Positions 29,268 to 38,026 of a stretch of 39,896 bases of DNA are shown here, piece after piece (position 1 is the stretch's first letter; every line of letters begins with the position of its first letter). This DNA is from Bacteroidales bacterium (GTDB lineage Bacteria > Bacteroidota > Bacteroidia > Bacteroidales > Bacteroidaceae). The notes beneath the pieces are model-generated. The model was not told the origin of the DNA. It saw nothing but the letters and a program-made list of their open reading frames with translations, and made no database searches. Location: contig SUXO01000018.1 in NCBI GenBank assembly GCA_015060885.1, positions 1 to 39,896 on the forward strand. Reading direction: 5' to 3'. The translations under genes were made by a program, and so were the position numbers.

Positions 29268-29885
29268 ATGAGCACAATAGTTAAAAGCAACATCACAGGC
29301 TTTCAAATGCCACCACTCCTCTACCCCGCAAGCGCACTTGCGCCTGCAATAAGCCAGACAACCATCGAGTACCACTACGGCAAGCATCTGCAAGCCTACA
29401 TCGACAAGCTCAACGAGCTTATCGCCGACAACGAATATGAGTTTATGACCTTGCGCGAAATTGTGGAGCAGGCACCCGACGGACCACTTGCCAACAACGC
29501 CGGACAGGTACTGAACCACTCGCTCTACTTTGAGCAGTTTACCCCCACCGCGCCGGGCAACAACCGCCCCAACGGCATTCTGCACAACTCAATAAGATTC
29601 GATTTCGGCAATTTCGATACCTTGAAAAAGAAGATGGAAGAGGCTTGCGCATCGCTTTTCGGTTCGGGCTGGGTGTGGCTCGCACAGGACGAAACGGGCA
29701 AGCTGCGCATAATAAACTGCCCAAATGGCGACAACCCCATACGCCACCATATGACACCTCTCTATGGCATTGATGTGTGGGAACACGCCTACTACATCGA
29801 CTACCAGAACCGCCGTATGGAACACGTAAAGCAGCTGTGGAGCATTGTCGACTGGGAGATGGTGGAAAGCCGAATGAATATGTAA
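29268..29885 (+). CDS. Superoxide dismutase (Fe/Mn family)
   Basis: The enzyme converts superoxide to oxygen and hydrogen peroxide in the cytosol. It has 205 residues. Metal ligands are His36 (EYHYGKH), His84 (LNHSLYF), Asp169 and His173 (DVWEHAYYIDY). Gln80 matches the second-shell glutamine of iron SODs, so iron or cambialistic use is likely. Compared with E. coli SodB, His31 is Leu41 and the conserved His17 is an alanine (APAIS), while Tyr34 is kept as Tyr44. FGSGWVWLA is the usual central motif. It is divergent from uvrD and ends at a strong terminator. Confidence 0.95.
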   Translation: MSTIVKSNITGFQMPPLLYPASALAPAISQTTIEYHYGKHLQAYIDKLNELIADNEYEFMTLREIVEQAPDGPLANNAGQVLNHSLYFEQFTPTAPGNNRPNGILHNSIRFDFGNFDTLKKKMEEACASLFGSGWVWLAQDETGKLRIINCPNGDNPIRHHMTPLYGIDVWEHAYYIDYQNRRMEHVKQLWSIVDWEMVESRMNM

Positions 29886-29897
29886 CCACCACACACA

Positions 29898-29943
29898 ATT
29901 ATAACAGCCGGTAGAATGCGCGCATTCTACCGGCTGTTATAAT
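29898..29943. terminator. Perfect 46-bp palindromic terminator
   Basis: The two 23-base arms (29898-29920 and 29921-29943) are exact reverse complements with no spacer, so the hairpin tip is formed by GCGCGC. It lies between the convergent SOD and nuclease genes and probably ends both transcripts. Confidence 0.85.
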
Positions 29944-29953
29944 GTCAAAAAAA

Positions 29954-30997
29954 TCATTCCTTTATCTCCTTTACAAGATATATTATCACAGGCAAGTGGT
30001 CGCTGTAACCATTGAGCCAGACACCGCCCGCGTGAGTACGCTTGGGCGAGCCCTTATACTTTCCTTCGGTCTGGAACATATAGTTGCGTGAAAATATTTC
30101 GGGCTTGTAGTACTTCAATGTAGAGCGGTCCTTTCCCACAAGGTTGCCGGTAAACACCACCTGGTCGAAGAGGTTCCAGTTGCCCCTGTATTTCAAGGTT
30201 CCCACGCCATCCTCGCGCAGGATTTTCCACCACGGGTTATAGAGGTCGGCAGGTTCTTTGAGTTCCTTGCGGTCGCGCACGGCGCCCAAACAGGTTTTCA
30301 TACTCTTGTCATCGGGATCGTCGTTCATATCGCCCATAATTATCACCTTTGCATCGGGGTTCGCCTTCATAATGGAATCCTTCAAGGCACGCACCTGAAC
30401 ACCTGCACGCTCACGGGCAGGGGATTTCGCATAGCGCGAAGGCCAGTGGTTCACAATCATATGAACATGCTCGCCGCTCATCATACCGCTCACCACAAGG
30501 AAACCACGTGTGCGGTACTCGTCGCTGCCATTCTCCAAGAGATAGGGAGCAAGTTTATAGGCATAGGGCTGATAGAGTGCCGGGTTGTACAGCAAGGCAC
30601 AATCGACACCGCGGGCATCGGGGCCTTCGACGTGAATGAACTTCCAGCCACGGGGAGCAAGTGCTTCCGACTCTATCAAAGCCTGCATCACTCTGCTGTT
30701 CTCAATTTCCGAAACTCCCACGGCAGCCATTCCCACAGGCAACATATCGGTAGCCATTTCGGCAAGCACTTCCGACATATTCTTCACCTTGTTTACATAT
30801 TTCATAGTACCCCACTTGTTGGTACCGTCGGGCAGATACTCAAAATCGTTCTTTCCCTCATCGTGAATGGTATCGAACAGATTTTCAAGGTTATAGAAAC
30901 CTACACCATACAACTCGAAACGTTTCTGCTGTGCCAACGACTGCGACATAAAAGCCACACAGCACAACAACACAACTACACTGATAAATCTTTTCAT
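29954..30997 (-). CDS. Secreted endonuclease/exonuclease/phosphatase-fold protein
   Basis: I start at ATG 30995-30997, which gives a signal peptide (MKRFISVVVLLCCVAFMSQSLA); an in-frame ATG 27 codons upstream would bury it. The product has 347 residues and the DNase I-like phosphoesterase fold: GFYNLENLFD near the N-terminus (the metal-site asparagine), VGVSEIEN (metal-site glutamate), HWPSRY (histidine), GDMNDDPDD (Asp/Asn pair) and YSDHLPVI (the Asp-His end). The family cuts phosphodiesters in nucleic acids, sugar phosphates or lipids; the substrate is unknown. It works in the periplasm or outside, and it is divergent from a TonB-dependent receptor operon. Confidence 0.88.
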   Translation of the reverse strand: MKRFISVVVLLCCVAFMSQSLAQQKRFELYGVGFYNLENLFDTIHDEGKNDFEYLPDGTNKWGTMKYVNKVKNMSEVLAEMATDMLPVGMAAVGVSEIENSRVMQALIESEALAPRGWKFIHVEGPDARGVDCALLYNPALYQPYAYKLAPYLLENGSDEYRTRGFLVVSGMMSGEHVHMIVNHWPSRYAKSPARERAGVQVRALKDSIMKANPDAKVIIMGDMNDDPDDKSMKTCLGAVRDRKELKEPADLYNPWWKILREDGVGTLKYRGNWNLFDQVVFTGNLVGKDRSTLKYYKPEIFSRNYMFQTEGKYKGSPKRTHAGGVWLNGYSDHLPVIIYLVKEIKE

Positions 30998-31042
30998 AAA
31001 CTCTTTTTCTTGACTAAAAGGGCCATCAAACCCAAATTGCGC

Positions 31043-31175
31043 CGTAAAAGTAACACAAATTATTAACAATAGCCACAAAAAGGAACAAATTTTGAATCAT
31101 TCCGACATTAACACTCCATTACAGAAAAAAAGGGTTGTTTTATTTCTTTAAATAAATTTATTTTGCCTATTTTCG
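31043..31175. promoter_or_regulatory. Divergent promoter region of the nuclease and receptor
   Basis: Towards the receptor, TTTC (31143-31146) and TATTTTCG (31168-31175) are 21 bases apart, giving a plausible promoter with a leader of about 90 bases. Towards the nuclease, TACTTTTA (31045-31052, minus strand) is a weak -7 candidate. The 268-base gap holds A/T-rich sequence and no gene. Confidence 0.45.
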
Positions 31176-31265
31176 CAAGAATTTAAGAGCCATTGGATGC
31201 CATTGCTCCGTAAACAATAACATTTTAAACCGATAAAAGTTTAAACATTAAGATATTATAACAAG

Positions 31266-34200
31266 ATGAAAAGATTTTTCAAGTACACGGCACTCTTTCT
31301 TGTCTGCCTCGCCTGGTGCAGCAATGCCCAAGCTATTACCGACAAGAATGACCCCATACAGGTCGTTTTTCGATTTGTAAAAGGGAACGACATGTTCTAT
31401 GTACCTTTAAAGGAGAATGCCGAGAACCTCGACAACCTGTGCAAGGTTCTCAAAGAGAATGCAGCCGAGAACGGTTCGGTATCGGTCGATGGATACAGCG
31501 ACACCAAAGCCCTCTCCAAGATTCGCTGCAACAGAGTAAAGTCGGAGCTGATACTGCGTGCAGGAGTCACCGAAAACACCTTCACCACAACCAACAACAC
31601 CGGCGAGTTCAATGGTATGAAGGATGTGGTGGTGATTACAGTCACCGTTCCCGAAGAGACAAATGAGGTTATCGCAGCTGCGCCTGCCGCAACCGAAAAG
31701 AAGGTTGAAGCAACTGCTGCCACTGAACCCACAAAGATGCAGGAGCACGTTGTAGGCCAGCTTGTACAGCTACCCCCTGCCGGCAACGTAACAACCATCG
31801 TTCCCGAATTCACCGGCATTGGCGGAGTTGACAAGGACCAGTTTACCTTTACCGAGAGTATGCTCGACGAAGACGAGGATGTAATTCAGGGAGCATCGGC
31901 AATGACAACTTCGAGCGACGACTACTTCCTCTCCGAAGTCGGCTACCGTTGGAGTTCAATGCGTTTCAAGGTACGCGGTTACGACTCGCAATATAATAGC
32001 GTGTATGCCAACGGCGCACTCCTCAACGATGCCGAGCGCGGTACATTCAGCTATGGTATGATTGGAGGACTTAACGATGCTACCCGTAACCAGGAGAGCA
32101 GCATCTATCTCGAAAACAGCAATTTCGGTTACAGCACCGTGGGCGGCGCAAGCAACATAAATATGCGAGCAAGCCAATATGCAGCCGGACACAAGATGTC
32201 GTTCGTCGCTTGTAACCGCAACTACCTGGCACGCCTTATGTACACCTACTCCACCGGCCTGATGGACAACGGATGGGCATTCACAATGTCGGCATCATAC
32301 CGCTGGGCCAATGAGGGTGTCATCGAAGGAACCTTCTACAACTCACTCGGTTACTATTTCAGCGCGCAGAAGGTTATAAACGACAAGCACAGCATCTCTA
32401 TTGCAACCTGGGGCTCACCCACAGAGCGCGGACAGCAAGGTGCCGCCACCGAAGAGGCCTACTGGCTTGCCAACGACCACTACTACAACCCCAACTGGGG
32501 ATACCAGAACGGCGAGAAGCGTAACGCACGCGTGGTGACATCGTACGAGCCCACCGCCCTCTTCACTTGGGACTACAAGATAAACCGCGAGACAAAGCTC
32601 ACCACATCGGCAGCTTTCAAATACGGCATATACGGCACAACAGCCCTCGGCTGGAACGGTAACGCCGCCGATCCCCGCCCCAACTACTACAAGAACCTGC
32701 CCAGTTCGGCATACAATGTTTGGGATCTCAACTATTACAATGCCGAAATAAACCCCGAAAACGCAATATACCAGGAGGACAACCGTGCCGAATGGTGGCG
32801 TCTTTACAACCACTGGACAAGCAGCAAGGCCAACCGACAGCTCAACTGGGATTATATGTACTTAGCCAACCGACAGGCCAATGCCGTGGGCGGCGAGTGT
32901 CTCTACTATGTCGAGGAGCGTCACAACGACCAGATGATGTTGAGCATAGGTTCGGTTCTCGACCACGAATTCAACAAGAACAACCGTGCCAACATTGGTG
33001 TGAACATAAACACCACCAAAGGTATGCACTACAAGAAGATGGACGACCTCCTGGGCGCACACAAATATACCGATATCGACAAATTCTCGGTAGGTGACCA
33101 CGGAGCAAGCAGCTATATTGTGCAGAACGACCTTGACAACCCCAACCGCCTCATACGCGAGGGCGACAAGTTCGGTTACGACTATAATATATATGTTAAT
33201 AAGGTAAACCTCTTCGCGCAATACCAGTACGACAAGAACAATATCCACTTCTATGCAGGAGCCAACATCGACGGTACAACAATTCAGCGCGAAGGTAATA
33301 TGCGTAACGGCCGTGCCGCCTGGATTGACGCAAACGGTGTAATGCACGACATTTCCAAAGGCAAGAGCGATGTTGCCCGCTTCCTGGGCGGTGGCGCAAA
33401 AGCTTCATTGCTGTGGAACATAAACGGCAACAACAAGGTAATGATTGGTGGAGGTTACTCGCACCGCGCTCCCCTCGCCTACAACTCATTCATTGCACCC
33501 CGTATACGCGAGGACTTTGTCAACGGGCTCGAAACCGAGAAAGTGTGGAATGGTGAAATATCTTACGCAGTGAAATATGGCCCCGTTGCAGCCAAAGTAA
33601 GCGGTTTCTACACACGCGTACAGGATGCCGTTCAGCAGAGCGCATTCTACAATGACAGCGAAGGCAAGTTCACATACCTTACAATGACCGGTGTTGAAAA
33701 GAGCTACTTCGGCGGAGAGTTCGCGCTCGTATATAATGTAACATCGGCACTATCGTTCAACATACTTGCATCTATTTCCGAGGCACAATACACAAAGAAC
33801 ACCAACGGTACATCTATGACTGAGGACCAGCAAGAACTGAAATACAAGAACTCAACCGTATATATGGACGGAGCAAGAGTGGGCGGTTCACCCCTCACTG
33901 CATTGAGTTTCGGTGTCGACTACAACACCAACGGCTGGTATTTGAGTGCAAACCTCAACTACTACGACCGCATTTATGTAAGCCCCTCGCTCTATGCACG
34001 CCTCGAAAGCACCGTGACCGGCGAAGGAGGAGTTGACATCAATGGCAACACAGTAAAGAACCTTCCCTCGCAGTTCCGTGGCGATGGCGGTTTCCTGCTC
34101 GATGCATCGATAGGCAAGAGCATCAGACTCAAAGGTGGCAAACAGCTCAACATCAACCTCAGCCTCAACAATATACTCAACAACAAGAAGATGGTTACAG

Positions 34201-34331
34201 GTGGATATGAGCAGAACCGTGGCGACTACAACGAGGACAACGAGCAGAAGATTTACAAGTTCTCAAAGAACCCCTTCCTGTACTACGCCAACTCATTCAA
34301 CGCATACCTTAACATTGGATTACGTTTCTAA
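31266..34331 (+). CDS. TonB-dependent receptor with OmpA-like N-terminal domain
   Basis: A 1021-residue outer-membrane protein. A signal peptide (1-23, ending CSNAQA) precedes an OmpA-C-like domain (about 30-130: NLDNLCKVLKENAAENGSV, VDGYSDTKALSKIRCNRVK), where such receptors normally carry a carboxypeptidase-regulatory-like domain. An Ala/Thr/Glu-rich linker follows (about 135-165). A plug domain is indicated by FKVRGYDSQYNSVYANGALL and GGLNDATRNQES, then comes a barrel of about 700 residues ending LNIGLRF with the usual terminal phenylalanine. I see no clear TonB box. It heads an operon with two lipoproteins, 23 bases before the next gene. TonB-driven import or a docking role is likely; the substrate is unknown. 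Confidence 0.85.
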   Translation: MKRFFKYTALFLVCLAWCSNAQAITDKNDPIQVVFRFVKGNDMFYVPLKENAENLDNLCKVLKENAAENGSVSVDGYSDTKALSKIRCNRVKSELILRAGVTENTFTTTNNTGEFNGMKDVVVITVTVPEETNEVIAAAPAATEKKVEATAATEPTKMQEHVVGQLVQLPPAGNVTTIVPEFTGIGGVDKDQFTFTESMLDEDEDVIQGASAMTTSSDDYFLSEVGYRWSSMRFKVRGYDSQYNSVYANGALLNDAERGTFSYGMIGGLNDATRNQESSIYLENSNFGYSTVGGASNINMRASQYAAGHKMSFVACNRNYLARLMYTYSTGLMDNGWAFTMSASYRWANEGVIEGTFYNSLGYYFSAQKVINDKHSISIATWGSPTERGQQGAATEEAYWLANDHYYNPNWGYQNGEKRNARVVTSYEPTALFTWDYKINRETKLTTSAAFKYGIYGTTALGWNGNAADPRPNYYKNLPSSAYNVWDLNYYNAEINPENAIYQEDNRAEWWRLYNHWTSSKANRQLNWDYMYLANRQANAVGGECLYYVEERHNDQMMLSIGSVLDHEFNKNNRANIGVNINTTKGMHYKKMDDLLGAHKYTDIDKFSVGDHGASSYIVQNDLDNPNRLIREGDKFGYDYNIYVNKVNLFAQYQYDKNNIHFYAGANIDGTTIQREGNMRNGRAAWIDANGVMHDISKGKSDVARFLGGGAKASLLWNINGNNKVMIGGGYSHRAPLAYNSFIAPRIREDFVNGLETEKVWNGEISYAVKYGPVAAKVSGFYTRVQDAVQQSAFYNDSEGKFTYLTMTGVEKSYFGGEFALVYNVTSALSFNILASISEAQYTKNTNGTSMTEDQQELKYKNSTVYMDGARVGGSPLTALSFGVDYNTNGWYLSANLNYYDRIYVSPSLYARLESTVTGEGGVDINGNTVKNLPSQFRGDGGFLLDASIGKSIRLKGGKQLNINLSLNNILNNKKMVTGGYEQNRGDYNEDNEQKIYKFSKNPFLYYANSFNAYLNIGLRF

Positions 34332-34340
34332 TTAAACGAA

Positions 34341-34345
34341 GGAGG
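34341..34345 (+). promoter_or_regulatory. Strong Shine-Dalgarno before the DUF5689 gene
   Basis: GGAGG lies nine bases before the ATG. Most genes in this window lack such a site, so this lipoprotein may be translated efficiently behind the long receptor gene. Confidence 0.6.
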
Positions 34346-34354
34346 AATAAAGAT

Positions 34355-35197
34355 ATGAAATCACTGAAATACCTGTTCATAACAGCACTCGCGGTATTCA
34401 CATTCACATCGTGTATGAATGACCACGACGAGCCCGACAGCGACATACCCGCCTATGGCAACAACCTCATAGGCATACCCAATATGTCAATCACCGAGTT
34501 CAAGACAAAATACAAACAAGCAATGTCGAGCACAGCCCCCACTACCATCACCGACAATGTAATAATAAAAGGTGTGGTTGTGTGCAACGACGAAACAGGC
34601 AACATCTACAAACAGATTGTGATAAACGACGGTGGCGACGCAATGCTCATTTCCGTGAACGATGTAGGCCTATACTCACAACTCCCTCGTGGCCAGATGG
34701 TAGCCATCGACTGCCAGGGCCTCGCAGTGGGTGCATACGGCAAACTGCCCCAGCTGGGCCTCCCATACACCAACAAATATGGTGAGATAGCCATAGGGCG
34801 TATGAACAAGCAAGCGTTCCAAAGCCACATAAAACTGCTTGGAACCCCCAACCCCTATTACAGCGAACTGGTACCCGAGGACCTCACTGCCGAGTTCCTT
34901 TCCAACGATGCCAACAAAGATTTGCTCCCCCGCTATGTACGCCTCAAAGGAGTATCGTTCCAGGAGGCCGACGGCACCACAATGTATGCTCCCGAAGAGG
35001 AGGTGCAGAACAGCGCAGTGGAGAGAACCGTAAAAGTGGGTAACACCAAAATCATATTCCGTTTGAGCTCTTATGCCGACTTTGCCTACGAGATACTGCC
35101 CCAGGGCACATTCGACATTGTGGGCGTGCTCACACGCTATAACAGCGATTGGCAGTTTATGTTAAGTTCCACAAGCGACATAACACCCGCCGAATAA
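34355..35197 (+). CDS. DUF5689 family surface lipoprotein
   Basis: A 280-residue lipoprotein. The signal peptide ends in a lipobox (FTFTSC, lipidated Cys20), followed by an acidic stretch (MNDHDEPDSD) that resembles export signals for surface lipoproteins in Bacteroidetes. The body is beta-rich: VIIKGVVVCNDETGNIYKQIVINDGG and MVAIDCQGLAVGAYGKLPQLG are typical of DUF5689, which has an OB-like outline. It lies between the receptor and a large OB/DUF6359 lipoprotein in one operon. The function is unknown; a binding role with the receptor is inferred. Confidence 0.82.
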   Translation: MKSLKYLFITALAVFTFTSCMNDHDEPDSDIPAYGNNLIGIPNMSITEFKTKYKQAMSSTAPTTITDNVIIKGVVVCNDETGNIYKQIVINDGGDAMLISVNDVGLYSQLPRGQMVAIDCQGLAVGAYGKLPQLGLPYTNKYGEIAIGRMNKQAFQSHIKLLGTPNPYYSELVPEDLTAEFLSNDANKDLLPRYVRLKGVSFQEADGTTMYAPEEEVQNSAVERTVKVGNTKIIFRLSSYADFAYEILPQGTFDIVGVLTRYNSDWQFMLSSTSDITPAE

Positions 35198-35230
35198 TAA
35201 AAGGAAGTATAATTAAAAACACAAATAACA

Positions 35231-38026
35231 ATGAAAACATTTAAGTATCTATTCATTGCAGCGTTGGCTATATTCAGTTTCAACGCTTGCGAAGATGTAC
35301 CCGCGCCCTATGACATACCGGCAATGAGCGGACAGAGCGGCAGCGGTAGCGGTAGCGGAAGTAGCGAAAGTACACCAGAAGGTGAAGGCACATTGGAAAG
35401 CCCCTACAACCCCGCAGCGGCAAACGCCTACATAAGCACCCTGGAAGCCGACGTAAATTCGGATAAAGCAATTTATGTAAAGGGTATAATATGCAGTATC
35501 AAGGAAGCACCAAGCAGCCAATATGGCAATGCAACGTTCTATATCTCGGCCGACGGCAAAAACGCAGGCGAGAAGTTCTATGTATATCGTTGCTACAACC
35601 TCGGAAACCAAAAATTCACCGATAGCGATGTTCTGAACGTAGGTGATGAGGTAATCATCTATGGTAAGGTGGTAAATTACAGAGGCGACACCCCCGAAAC
35701 TGTGCAGAAGGAAGCCTACATATACTCGCATAGCGGTGCTACCGACGACGATGGCGGCGAAGAAGAAGAACCAGGCGAAGTTATGACAGTAGCCCAAGCA
35801 CTTGCTGCCTTTACCGGTACCGCGAAACCGGCAATAGTCAAAGGTTGCATTGTAGGTTTCATTCCCGACAAGAGCATCGACGAGGCTACATTCAACGGCA
35901 ACGCAACTGCAAAGACCAATATCATCATCGCCGATACACCCGACGAGACAGATATAACAAAATGTATGCCCATACAGTTGCCCAGCGGCAATATCCGCAG
36001 CAAAGTAAACTTGCAGGAGAACCCCGGCAACTACAAGAAGGTTGTAACCCTCACCGGTTCACTTGAAAAATATTTCGGCGTAACAGGCTTGAAGAGTGTT
36101 TCAAAAGCACTGTTCGAAGGCGAAGAAGATGACAGCGACGACGAGAACAAAGGCAACGTATATCTCGACGAGAAATTTGCCGACGGACTCGGCTCGTTCA
36201 CCACAGCACAGATTGTCAACGACTATGCCTGGAAACACGAGGTATACAACGACAAAGCATACGCAAAAGTATCGGGTTATGCCAATGGCGCAAGCCAGGA
36301 TGCCGAAAGCTGGCTCATTTCGCCCGCTATCGACTTCACCGGCGAAACAACAGCTTCTATCAGCTTCGACTATGTGATTAACAAGGGTGATGCAAGCCTT
36401 GCAGCAGCCAACCATAAGCTGATGATTACTGACAACTACACCGGCGACTTCTACACCACCAACTGGGACGAGATAGAGTTCGGTGCAACAAACGACAACA
36501 CTTGGAACTTCCGCAGCACAGGCAACATCGCCATTCCCGAATCATATATGGGCAAAGAGGCTGTGGTAATTGCATTCAAATATGTATCGACCACATCGGC
36601 TTCAAGTACCTGGGAGGTTAACAACGTACTTGTAACAGGCGAGAAGGGCGGCTCGGTTGAAGGTGGCGATAACACAGGTGGCGACAATACCGGCGGTGAT
36701 GATAACACAGGAGGTGACGATAATACCGGCGACGGCACATTGGAAAGCCCCTATACCCCCGCAGGAGCCAACGCTTTTGCAAGCACATTGGCTTCCGGCA
36801 GCAACTCCGATAAGGAAGTTTACATCAAAGGTATAATTTGCAGTATCAAAGAAGCACCAAGCAGCCAATATGGCAATGCAACGTTCTACATCTCGGCCGA
36901 CGGTTCTACCGGAAGCGAGCAGTTCTATGTATACCGTTGCTACAACCTCGGGAACCAAAAATTCACCGGCAACGAGCAACTCAACGTCGGAGATGAGGTT
37001 ATCATCTGCGGTAAAGTAACCAACTATATGGGCAACACCCCAGAAACTGTGCAGAACGCAGCTTACATCTATTCTCTCAACGGGGAAACAGGTGACGACA
37101 ATACCGGTGACGACAATACCGGTGACGATAACACAGGCGATGCCAACACAGGCGACGGCACATTGGCAAGCCCCTATACTCCCGCAGGAGCCAACGCTTT
37201 TGCAAGCACATTGGCTTCCGGCAGCAACTCCGATAAGGAAGTTTACATCAAAGGTATAATATGCAACGTGAAATATCAGCCCGATGCTCAATACGGAAAT
37301 GCAACATTCTATATCTCTTCCGACGGTACAACCGGAAGCGAGCAGTTCTACATATTCCGTTGCTACAACCTCGGAAACCAAAAATTCACAGGTAGCGAGA
37401 AACTTAACGTTGGAGATGAGGTTATCATCTGCGGTAAAGTAACCAACTATATGGGCAACACCCCAGAAACTGTGCAGAACGCAGCCTACATCTATTCTCT
37501 CAACGGGAACACAGGCGGCGACAACACAGGTGACGACAATACAGGTGGCGATGACACAGGTGACGACAACACCGGTGGCGATGACACAGGTGACGACAAC
37601 ACCGGTGACGACAACACAGGTGGCGATGACACAGGTGGCGATGACACAGGCGATGACAACACCAACCTACCCGAAGGCTCAATGAGCGTTGCACAGGCTA
37701 TCAGCGCATACAATGGTGGAACAACCGGTGAGGTTACCATTACCGCCTACATTGTAGGTTACGCGAAAAGCGCAGGCAGCGGTTTTGTGGGTGAGTTCAG
37801 TACCGGCACTGTACTTTCAAATATTATCATTGCCGACAACCCCGATGAGACCGACTCGGCAAAATGTATGCCCGTGCAGTTGAAAAGCAAGACCGATATA
37901 AGAACAGCTCTCAACATTTCTGAAAATCCCGGCAACCTGGGCAAGAAAGTTACACTCACAGGCTCACTCGAAGAGTATTTCAAGTCACCCGGTCTTAAAG
38001 AACTCACAGCCTACTCTTTTGAATAA
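35231..38026 (+). CDS. Modular lipoprotein with repeated OB-like and DUF6359 domains
   Basis: A 931-residue lipoprotein with lipobox FSFNAC (Cys20) and a Gly/Ser linker. Modules in order: an OB-fold-like unit (about 53-167, YVKGIICSIKE, FYVYRCYNLGNQKF, LNVGDEVIIYGKV); a DUF6359-type unit (184-298, IIIADTPDETDITKCMP, YFGVTGLK); a jelly-roll or choice-of-anchor-like unit (305-475, WLISPAIDF); two further OB-like units (about 501-617 and 642-757); and a second DUF6359 unit (817-931). GDDNTG-rich linkers separate the later ones. Units two and three are nearly identical in DNA with a 423-base step. Repeated OB-like units suggest multivalent polymer binding at the cell surface. No catalytic motif is evident. 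Confidence 0.82.
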   Translation: MKTFKYLFIAALAIFSFNACEDVPAPYDIPAMSGQSGSGSGSGSSESTPEGEGTLESPYNPAAANAYISTLEADVNSDKAIYVKGIICSIKEAPSSQYGNATFYISADGKNAGEKFYVYRCYNLGNQKFTDSDVLNVGDEVIIYGKVVNYRGDTPETVQKEAYIYSHSGATDDDGGEEEEPGEVMTVAQALAAFTGTAKPAIVKGCIVGFIPDKSIDEATFNGNATAKTNIIIADTPDETDITKCMPIQLPSGNIRSKVNLQENPGNYKKVVTLTGSLEKYFGVTGLKSVSKALFEGEEDDSDDENKGNVYLDEKFADGLGSFTTAQIVNDYAWKHEVYNDKAYAKVSGYANGASQDAESWLISPAIDFTGETTASISFDYVINKGDASLAAANHKLMITDNYTGDFYTTNWDEIEFGATNDNTWNFRSTGNIAIPESYMGKEAVVIAFKYVSTTSASSTWEVNNVLVTGEKGGSVEGGDNTGGDNTGGDDNTGGDDNTGDGTLESPYTPAGANAFASTLASGSNSDKEVYIKGIICSIKEAPSSQYGNATFYISADGSTGSEQFYVYRCYNLGNQKFTGNEQLNVGDEVIICGKVTNYMGNTPETVQNAAYIYSLNGETGDDNTGDDNTGDDNTGDANTGDGTLASPYTPAGANAFASTLASGSNSDKEVYIKGIICNVKYQPDAQYGNATFYISSDGTTGSEQFYIFRCYNLGNQKFTGSEKLNVGDEVIICGKVTNYMGNTPETVQNAAYIYSLNGNTGGDNTGDDNTGGDDTGDDNTGGDDTGDDNTGDDNTGGDDTGGDDTGDDNTNLPEGSMSVAQAISAYNGGTTGEVTITAYIVGYAKSAGSGFVGEFSTGTVLSNIIIADNPDETDSAKCMPVQLKSKTDIRTALNISENPGNLGKKVTLTGSLEEYFKSPGLKELTAYSFE
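36731..37500 (+). repeat. In-gene 423-bp duplication encoding OB-like modules
   Basis: GACGGCACATTGG begins at 36731 and again at 37154, and most of the following 340 bases match closely. The more diverged first module of the same type begins near 35386. The high DNA identity of the last two points to a recent duplication. Confidence 0.8.
37500..37670 (+). repeat. Asp/Gly/Asn/Thr linker microrepeat
   Basis: Units such as GGTGACGACAACACA and GGTGGCGATGACACA recur about ten times and encode GDDNTGGDDTG. Shorter arrays lie near 36660-36735 and 37090-37155. All units are multiples of three bases, so slippage would change linker length without breaking the frame. Confidence 0.8.

What the first reader, a model, noticed from the sequence alone, without database searches (positions are those of the whole stretch)
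29954..38026. Candidate envelope system: secreted nuclease-fold enzyme, OmpA-fused TonB receptor, DUF5689 and OB/DUF6359 lipoproteins
Seen: a signal-peptide phosphoesterase of the DNase I-like fold is divergent from an operon encoding a TonB-dependent receptor and two lipoproteins rich in OB-like modules. Known: TonB receptors import large or scarce ligands, OB folds often bind nucleic acids or oligosaccharides, and the phosphoesterase fold cuts phosphodiesters. Inferred: the set may capture, cut and import a phosphodiester polymer such as extracellular DNA or RNA, perhaps for phosphate or nucleosides. I know of no experimental description of this combination.
Basis: partly seen in the sequence, partly recalled or inferred. 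Interest (0 to 1): 0.75.

Follow-up and report, generated by a model that had tools for sequence, protein, structure and literature searches.

The report
Bacteroidia DNA-import gene cluster
A conserved set of envelope genes in a Bacteroidota bacterium is related to the outer-membrane genes that a duck pathogen needs to take up DNA, so it is probably a DNA-import system, here with unusual changes.

Summary
In detail: a secreted DNase I-fold enzyme (PF19580), a TonB-dependent receptor and two OB-rich lipoproteins lie where stated. Receptor plus DUF5689 lipoprotein, usually with the enzyme upstream, recurs across many families. It is not undescribed: in Riemerella anatipestifer the homologous adjacent pair is essential for natural transformation (PMC8459023), and a named R. 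anatipestifer record has the same three genes in order; window proteins match them at E 2e-93, 2e-26 and 7e-60. The DUF5689 model is OB-fold, closest in Foldseek to HIN-200 DNA-binding domains. DNA import is the best reading. Against it: the gene naming this lipoprotein family, M949_1556, is also reported to affect LPS and virulence, and the HHH DNA-binding protein that Riemerella needs is strongly matched in 72 of 72 other Bacteroidia genomes but in none of 37 of this genus. The OmpA-like fusion is local (4 of 21 loci, sub-threshold); the enzyme persists in 9 of 12 genomes without DUF5689. Verdict: variant of a known, little-studied DNA-uptake module.

The parts
29954..30997 (-). Secreted or periplasmic DNase I-fold enzyme (Exo_endo_phos_3, PF19580), likely nuclease; homolog of the gene next to the transformation receptor in Riemerella
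   Evidence: PF19580 E 1.1e-99; N63, E65, E126, H211, D250, N252 kept in 43 of 43 and D360, H361 in 42 of 43 aligned sequences (374-aa frame numbering); 32% identity, E 7e-60 to R. anatipestifer L139
30998..31265 (.). Shared divergent intergenic region between enzyme and receptor genes
   Evidence: ORF coordinates
31266..34331 (+). TonB-dependent receptor (plug + about 22 barrel strands, counted by eye), putative outer-membrane DNA channel
31359..31649 (+). OmpA-like N-terminal segment of the receptor (tentative)
   Evidence: PF00691 17.3 bits, cut-off 27.2; seen in window, L063, L066, L075 only, 4 of 21 same-genus loci
34355..35197 (+). DUF5689 OB-fold lipoprotein, putative DNA-binding surface partner
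   Evidence: PF18942 E 4.6e-59; model pLDDT 82.6; Foldseek top matches HIN-200 domains; 31% identity, E 2e-26 to R. anatipestifer L139
35231..38026 (+). Multi-module lipoprotein: DUF6359 (two stretches), OB-fold modules (two stretches), choice-of-anchor-J, Gly/Asp/Asn/Thr-rich linkers
   Evidence: Pfam and NCBIfam
36218..36634 (+). choice-of-anchor-J / DUF5017-like domain, fused to DUF5689 in one protein in Riemerella
   Evidence: NF038128 E 2.2e-9 in the window, E 1e-12 in L139
29268..29885 (+). Neighbour: Fe/Mn superoxide dismutase (context only)
   Evidence: PF02777/PF00081; next to the enzyme gene in 16 of the 17 same-genus regions that hold that gene

Best explanation
The receptor-DUF5689(-DUF6359) operon is an outer-membrane DNA-import module, homologous to the pair that R. 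anatipestifer needs for natural transformation. Proposed working: surface OB-fold lipoproteins bind extracellular DNA and hand it to the TonB-driven receptor, which passes it to the periplasm; the divergently encoded DNase I-fold enzyme processes it there (cutting it, or making the single strands that ComEC takes). Shown by others in Riemerella: both homologs are essential for transformation. Shown here: homology, gene order, conservation, predicted folds. Inferred: DNA as ligand in this organism, passage through the barrel, the enzyme as the processing nuclease. Whether the DNA is recombined or digested in this genus is not settled (about 0.4 transformation, 0.35 feeding, given DNA import).
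For: Markerless deletions of RA0C_RS04915 and RA0C_RS04920 take transformation below detection (PMC8459023). A record titled Riemerella anatipestifer (L139) has comEC, a 145-aa ORF, a carboxylase, the enzyme, the receptor and DUF5689 in that order, consistent with locus numbers RS04895 (ComEC) to RS04920 in steps of five. Window proteins match these at E 2e-93, 2e-26 and 7e-60. DUF5689 model: HIN-200 DNA-binding domains lead Foldseek (E 5.6e-6), RPA and POT1 entries follow. Receptor model with plug and barrel. tonBA and tonBB mutants of Riemerella transform less (PMC8383284, passages), though its authors explain tonBB by iron. In L097, L098 and L107 an enzyme of this family is on the same strand directly upstream of the receptor. 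Most operon-linked enzymes fall in one tree group apart from unlinked order-level copies (support values not examined). ComEC and DprA are in the window's genome, but these are near-universal.
Confidence: 0.62

Rival explanations
1. Nucleic-acid feeding: DNA or RNA is bound, imported and digested for phosphate or nucleosides; recombination is not involved.
For: Nuclease-fold enzyme beside the operon; no genome of 37 in the genus has a strong match to the HHH protein needed for transformation in Riemerella, yet DUF5689 is kept with an intact frame in 25 of 37.
Against: No phosphatase, nucleosidase or nucleoside permease among the six ORFs scanned; the experimental record seen for the homologs is transformation and antigenicity/virulence, not feeding; a paper search on extracellular DNA, TonB-dependent receptors and Bacteroidetes listed nothing on this cluster (listing only).
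Confidence: 0.22
2. The system imports or handles an unrelated ligand, or shapes the cell surface (glycan, LPS-linked, vitamin, metal complex), and the transformation phenotype of Riemerella is indirect.
For: M949_1556, which names the lipoprotein family that L139's DUF5689 protein belongs to (590.8 bits, cut-off 475), is listed among genes associated with LPS synthesis and acts on antigenicity and virulence (passages of citing papers). The receptor model matches vitamin and siderophore transporters, B. theta BtuB-lipoprotein complexes included. OB folds are general; identity to Riemerella is low.
Against: Markerless deletion of either gene drops transformation from 5.4e-5 to below a limit of 4.2e-10, alongside comEC, dprA, comF and recA; a nuclease-fold neighbour is conserved over many families; DUF5689 resembles DNA binders most.
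Confidence: 0.27
3. The enzyme is not part of the system: it is an old neighbour of the SOD gene that happens to lie beside the operon.
For: Kept in 9 of 12 same-genus genomes without DUF5689; near SOD in 3 of 7 fetched regions of that kind; SOD neighbours it in many Chryseobacterium loci too.
Against: An enzyme of the family is directly upstream on the same strand in L097, L098 and L107, though of another tree branch; in 61 of the 62 named loci that show it, it lies within 0.8 kb of the receptor on the opposite strand (L188's receptor is split into two frames); 25 of 25 same-genus genomes with DUF5689 have it.
Confidence: 0.3

Closest known systems
Riemerella anatipestifer natural-transformation pair RA0C_RS04915 / RA0C_RS04920 (PMC8459023; NCBIfam M949_1556 lipoprotein family)
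   Same: Receptor followed by DUF5689 lipoprotein, enzyme divergent upstream; homologous over receptor barrel, DUF5689 and enzyme.
   Different: Riemerella's receptor has a CarboxypepD_reg N-terminus (PF13620), the window's has an OmpA-like segment; anchor-J is fused to DUF5689 in Riemerella and sits in a separate OB-rich lipoprotein here; no strong match to the HHH protein in this genus.
SusC/SusD-type nutrient importers of Bacteroidota
   Same: TonB-dependent receptor with lipoproteins in one operon.
   Different: No SusD family match in either lipoprotein at E up to 1.
B. theta BtuB-lipoprotein vitamin B12 complexes (8bmx, 8blw)
   Different: The window's partners are OB-type; that BtuG differs in fold is recalled; ligand differs by inference.
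ExeM/NucH extracellular DNases
   Same: Weak local similarity of the enzyme (NF033681 E 0.021 in the window, 7.5e-5 in L139).
   Different: Far below that family's cut-off of 300 bits.

Membership tests
R. anatipestifer-type outer-membrane DNA-uptake pair | Receptor homologous to RA0C_RS04915 | tested here: met
   28% identity over 864 columns, E 2e-93 to the receptor of L139; that L139's gene is RA0C_RS04915 follows from order and domain
R. anatipestifer-type outer-membrane DNA-uptake pair | DUF5689 lipoprotein directly downstream of the receptor | tested here: met
   24 of 24 fetched same-genus loci
R. anatipestifer-type outer-membrane DNA-uptake pair | Anchor-J/DUF5017 domain in the same protein as DUF5689 (M949_1556 family, 475-bit cut-off) | tested here: not met
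   Window DUF5689 protein 107.5 bits on NF052645; anchor-J lies in the next gene
R. anatipestifer-type outer-membrane DNA-uptake pair | CarboxypepD_reg N-terminal domain on the receptor | tested here: not met
   PF13620 in L139, none in the window at E up to 1
R. anatipestifer-type outer-membrane DNA-uptake pair | Multi-HHH protein (RS02645 type) in the genome | tested here: not met
   No strong match in 37 of 37 same-genus genomes, best E 3.4e-10 in a 711-aa frame; short N-terminal matches in 29 of 37, eight of them inspected
R. anatipestifer-type outer-membrane DNA-uptake pair | ComEC and DprA in the genome | tested here: met
   G000:C23 and G000:C18; present in 60 and 57 of 61 genomes, so not diagnostic
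R. anatipestifer-type outer-membrane DNA-uptake pair | Needed for DNA uptake or transformation in this organism | not testable with these tools
   No genetics
SusC/SusD nutrient importer | SusD-family lipoprotein partner | tested here: not met
   No SusD match for either lipoprotein at E up to 1
TonB-dependent transporter | Plug plus 22-strand barrel | tested here: met
Exo_endo_phos_3 enzyme | PF19580 score and active-site residues | tested here: met
   333.9 bits, cut-off 27; residues kept in 42-43 of 43; that these are active-site residues is recalled
OmpA peptidoglycan-binding domain | PF00691 over cut-off with Asp and Arg of the binding site | tested here: inconclusive
   17.3 bits, cut-off 27.2; Asp and Arg seem present by eye against the recalled motif; model there under pLDDT 50

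The most novel reading that the evidence does not exclude
In this genus the outer-membrane half of the Bacteroidia DNA-uptake machine has been uncoupled from transformation: the HHH DNA-binding protein was cut down to a membrane-anchor micro-protein, the receptor lost its CarboxypepD_reg domain (in one clade for an OmpA-like wall anchor), and an extra OB-rich lipoprotein was added, giving a DNA-feeding importer in which the periplasmic nuclease digests the load.
Probability: 0.23. Interest if true: 0.75.

Novelty: new variant of a known kind. Interest (0 to 1): 0.57.

Why it matters
How Bacteroidota move DNA across the outer membrane is poorly known; the Riemerella authors found no similarity of this pair to known machinery. 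The data tie a conserved TonB receptor, an OB-fold lipoprotein and a nuclease-fold enzyme together over at least 11 family labels, offer the enzyme as a candidate for the 'unidentified protein' that makes single strands in the Riemerella model, and show a genus that keeps the module without a recognisable HHH protein. Each step can be tested with single deletions and purified proteins.

Tried and rejected
SusC/SusD glycan importer: rejected for lack of a SusD match. Sequence searches of PDB: none for DUF5689, the enzyme or the DUF6359 protein, two chance-level rows for the receptor (E 0.21 and 0.55); profiles gave nothing convincing for DUF5689 (best E 0.038) and for the receptor only cellulosomal scaffoldin at the homologs' N-terminal domain (E 5.6e-5); so folds were compared instead. 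ComEC and DprA as a competence test: useless, near-universal. HHH protein as a partner of the operon across the class: not discriminating, since all 72 other Bacteroidia genomes match it (E 2.8e-32 or better) whether DUF5689 is strong (E up to 1e-20; 45 of 72), weaker (7) or unmatched (20); some of these HHH matches cover part of the model only. DUF5689 as a marker on its own: rejected; 8 of 8 fetched regions of weak matches (L109-L116) show no receptor or enzyme of this type. Enzyme as an obligate part: weakened. The OmpA-like and DUF6359 regions were not modelled apart (two structure jobs only).

Full report
What is there. The enzyme reads from an internal ATG at 30997 down to 29954 on the minus strand, with a signal peptide and no evident lipobox by eye. 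The receptor (31266-34331), the DUF5689 lipoprotein (34355-35197) and the DUF6359/OB/anchor-J lipoprotein (35231-38026) follow on the plus strand with gaps of 23 and 33 bases. Both lipoproteins have a cysteine at position 20 after a hydrophobic start (sequence). Families: PF19580 E 1.1e-99; PF18942 E 4.6e-59; PF19886 E 9.2e-68 and PF01336 42.5 bits; anchor-J E 2.2e-9. The receptor has no Pfam family over cut-off; its OmpA match is 17.3 bits against 27.2.

Conservation. The window's DUF5689 protein matched 34 of 61 genomes: 25 of 37 in its genus and 9 of 24 in the rest of the order, without stops in the listed matches. In 24 of 24 fetched same-genus loci besides the window, the receptor is upstream and a DUF6359-type protein downstream. 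In 20 longer same-genus regions the enzyme is divergent upstream in 17 (not in L070, L073, L076), with SOD next to it in 16 of these 17 (L068 is cut); for the genomes of L070 and L073 it lies elsewhere beside SOD (L255, L256). Of the 20 best-scoring regions from the phylum sample, the receptor is adjacent in 19 and the enzyme beside the receptor in 15. Of 12 family or order regions from 11 genomes, 10 have the receptor and 8 the enzyme; L102, L104 and L108 are cut by contig ends, while L105, a partial DUF5689 at a contig end, has 8.8 kb upstream without the receptor. In L097, L098 and L107 an enzyme is on the same strand directly upstream of the receptor. Together the trio is seen under at least 11 family labels. 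Eight weak DUF5689 regions (L109-L116) have neither partner. In 64 named loci, found with a receptor as query and so not an independent sample of receptors, DUF5689 follows in 64; the enzyme is seen in 62 (L183 and L200 start inside the receptor), on the opposite strand in all 62 and within 0.8 kb of the receptor in 61 (L182 is 6 kb off; in L188 the receptor is split into two frames).

Link to natural transformation. PMC8459023 (abstract, sections 18, 20 and 21, and passages read) reports a transposon screen in R. anatipestifer; markerless deletions of RA0C_RS04915 (receptor-like) and RA0C_RS04920 (DUF5689 + DUF5017) abolish transformation. RA0C_RS04910 is mentioned once, as the upstream gene whose transcription did not change; no mutant of it is in the passages and tables seen. 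The record L139, titled Riemerella anatipestifer, carries comEC, a 145-aa ORF, a carboxylase, the enzyme, the receptor and DUF5689 in that order. By position the enzyme would be RA0C_RS04910; this is inference. Window against L139: receptor 28%, E 2e-93; DUF5689 31%, E 2e-26; enzyme 32%, E 7e-60. The DUF6359 protein has no real pairwise match to L139's DUF5689 protein (E 0.037), though both carry anchor-J by profile. comEC was found next to the cluster only in L139 among the 64 named loci.

Other literature. PMC8383284 (passages only): tonBA and tonBB mutants transform less; the authors relate tonBB to iron. PMC7965970 (passages only): R. columbina is competent, F. johnsoniae was not under the same conditions. 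The lipoprotein family is named after M949_1556; L139's protein scores 590.8 bits on it, cut-off 475. Twelve papers hold that gene name; in passages of three (PMC12566107, PMC11481396, PMC6142336) it is cited as acting on antigenicity and pathogenicity, used for an attenuated strain, and counted among genes associated with LPS synthesis. The original study (Vet. Microbiol. 2015) was not seen; that M949_1556 is the same gene as RA0C_RS04920 is inferred from the family name. This is a second phenotype and could mean an indirect effect on transformation. Searches: DUF5689 in 1 paper, DUF6359 in none, the RA0C numbers in 1 paper; searches listed nothing further on the pair (listings only). The library holds open-access papers only.

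The enzyme. Asn63, Glu65, Glu126, His211, Asp250 and Asn252 are kept in 43 of 43 and Asp360 and His361 in 42 of 43 aligned proteins; from general knowledge of the DNase I fold these are active-site positions. It is far below the ExeM/NucH cut-off. Same-genus genomes hold the family in 34 of 37: 25 of 25 with DUF5689 and 9 of 12 without; three of seven fetched no-operon regions (L249, L250, L252) still show it near SOD. In the tree (midpoint-rooted, supports not examined) most operon-linked enzymes, with those of the no-operon genomes of this genus, form one large group apart from unlinked order-level copies; the same-strand enzymes of L097, L098 and L107 branch apart, the other copy of L098 falls in the window's group, and the copy labelled linked in L092 is not adjacent to its receptor. 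So the association is old, perhaps made by more than one enzyme lineage, but not obligatory.

Evidence against plain transformation in this genus. The multi-HHH protein is essential in Riemerella. A model of seven such proteins (A1) matches all 72 other Bacteroidia genomes of the phylum sample at E 2.8e-32 or better, some over part of the model, and 20 of 24 other-family genomes of the order at E 1.7e-20 or better (not G047, G049, G053, G057, three of which are 61-79% complete). In the 37 genomes of this genus the best match is E 3.4e-10, in a frame of about 700 aa; 29 of 37 also list a short N-terminal match. Eight of these, picked because they had the match, hold a 32-36 aa ORF with an F-S/T-K-G/S-QRRG anchor and a hydrophobic stretch; codon-position differences of 223, 33 and 320 over 28 pairs fit coding constraint, though a membrane helix alone also favours quiet second positions. 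The assemblies are 55-98% complete, which does not explain absence in 37 of 37. A replacement too divergent for the model is not excluded.

Local changes. The receptor's N-terminus is CarboxypepD_reg in Riemerella and looks so by eye in many other-family receptors; it is not evident in the 21 same-genus receptors read, and the window, L063, L066 and L075 carry the OmpA-like segment instead. Anchor-J is split from DUF5689 here.

Reading. I commit to DNA import across the outer membrane (0.62), with the enzyme as a possible periplasmic processing nuclease (about 0.5). Transformation or feeding in this genus is undecided. The tool counts the Riemerella-type genome G400 (receptor 93% identical to L139's) as 'same class' as the window; that class is Bacteroidia in the GTDB sense as I recall, while NCBI puts Riemerella in Flavobacteriia. 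I did not name the organism further.

Noticed in passing
L238:2688-2798 (G000 contig 53), also L239-L245: A 32-36 aa membrane-anchor micro-ORF resembling the N-terminus of the multi-HHH protein, with no HHH part found, in eight inspected same-genus genomes; 29 of 37 list such a match; codon pattern fits translation.
   Followed up: partly
29268-30997: The SOD gene and the PF19580 enzyme gene are neighbours in this genus and in many Chryseobacterium loci, so the pairing is old.
   Followed up: partly
L127:11994-17432 and L139:15664-19863: In both Riemerella-type loci ORFs that look like type II CRISPR genes (a large Cas9-like ORF) lie downstream of the DUF5689 gene; named from sequence by eye only.
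   Followed up: no
L109-L116: DUF5689 domains with weak scores occur in unlinked, often large proteins of other Bacteroidota; role unknown.
   Followed up: no
35231-38026: The DUF6359 lipoprotein varies from 522 to 1237 aa within the genus regions, with Gly/Asp/Asn/Thr-rich linkers between modules in the window.
   Followed up: no
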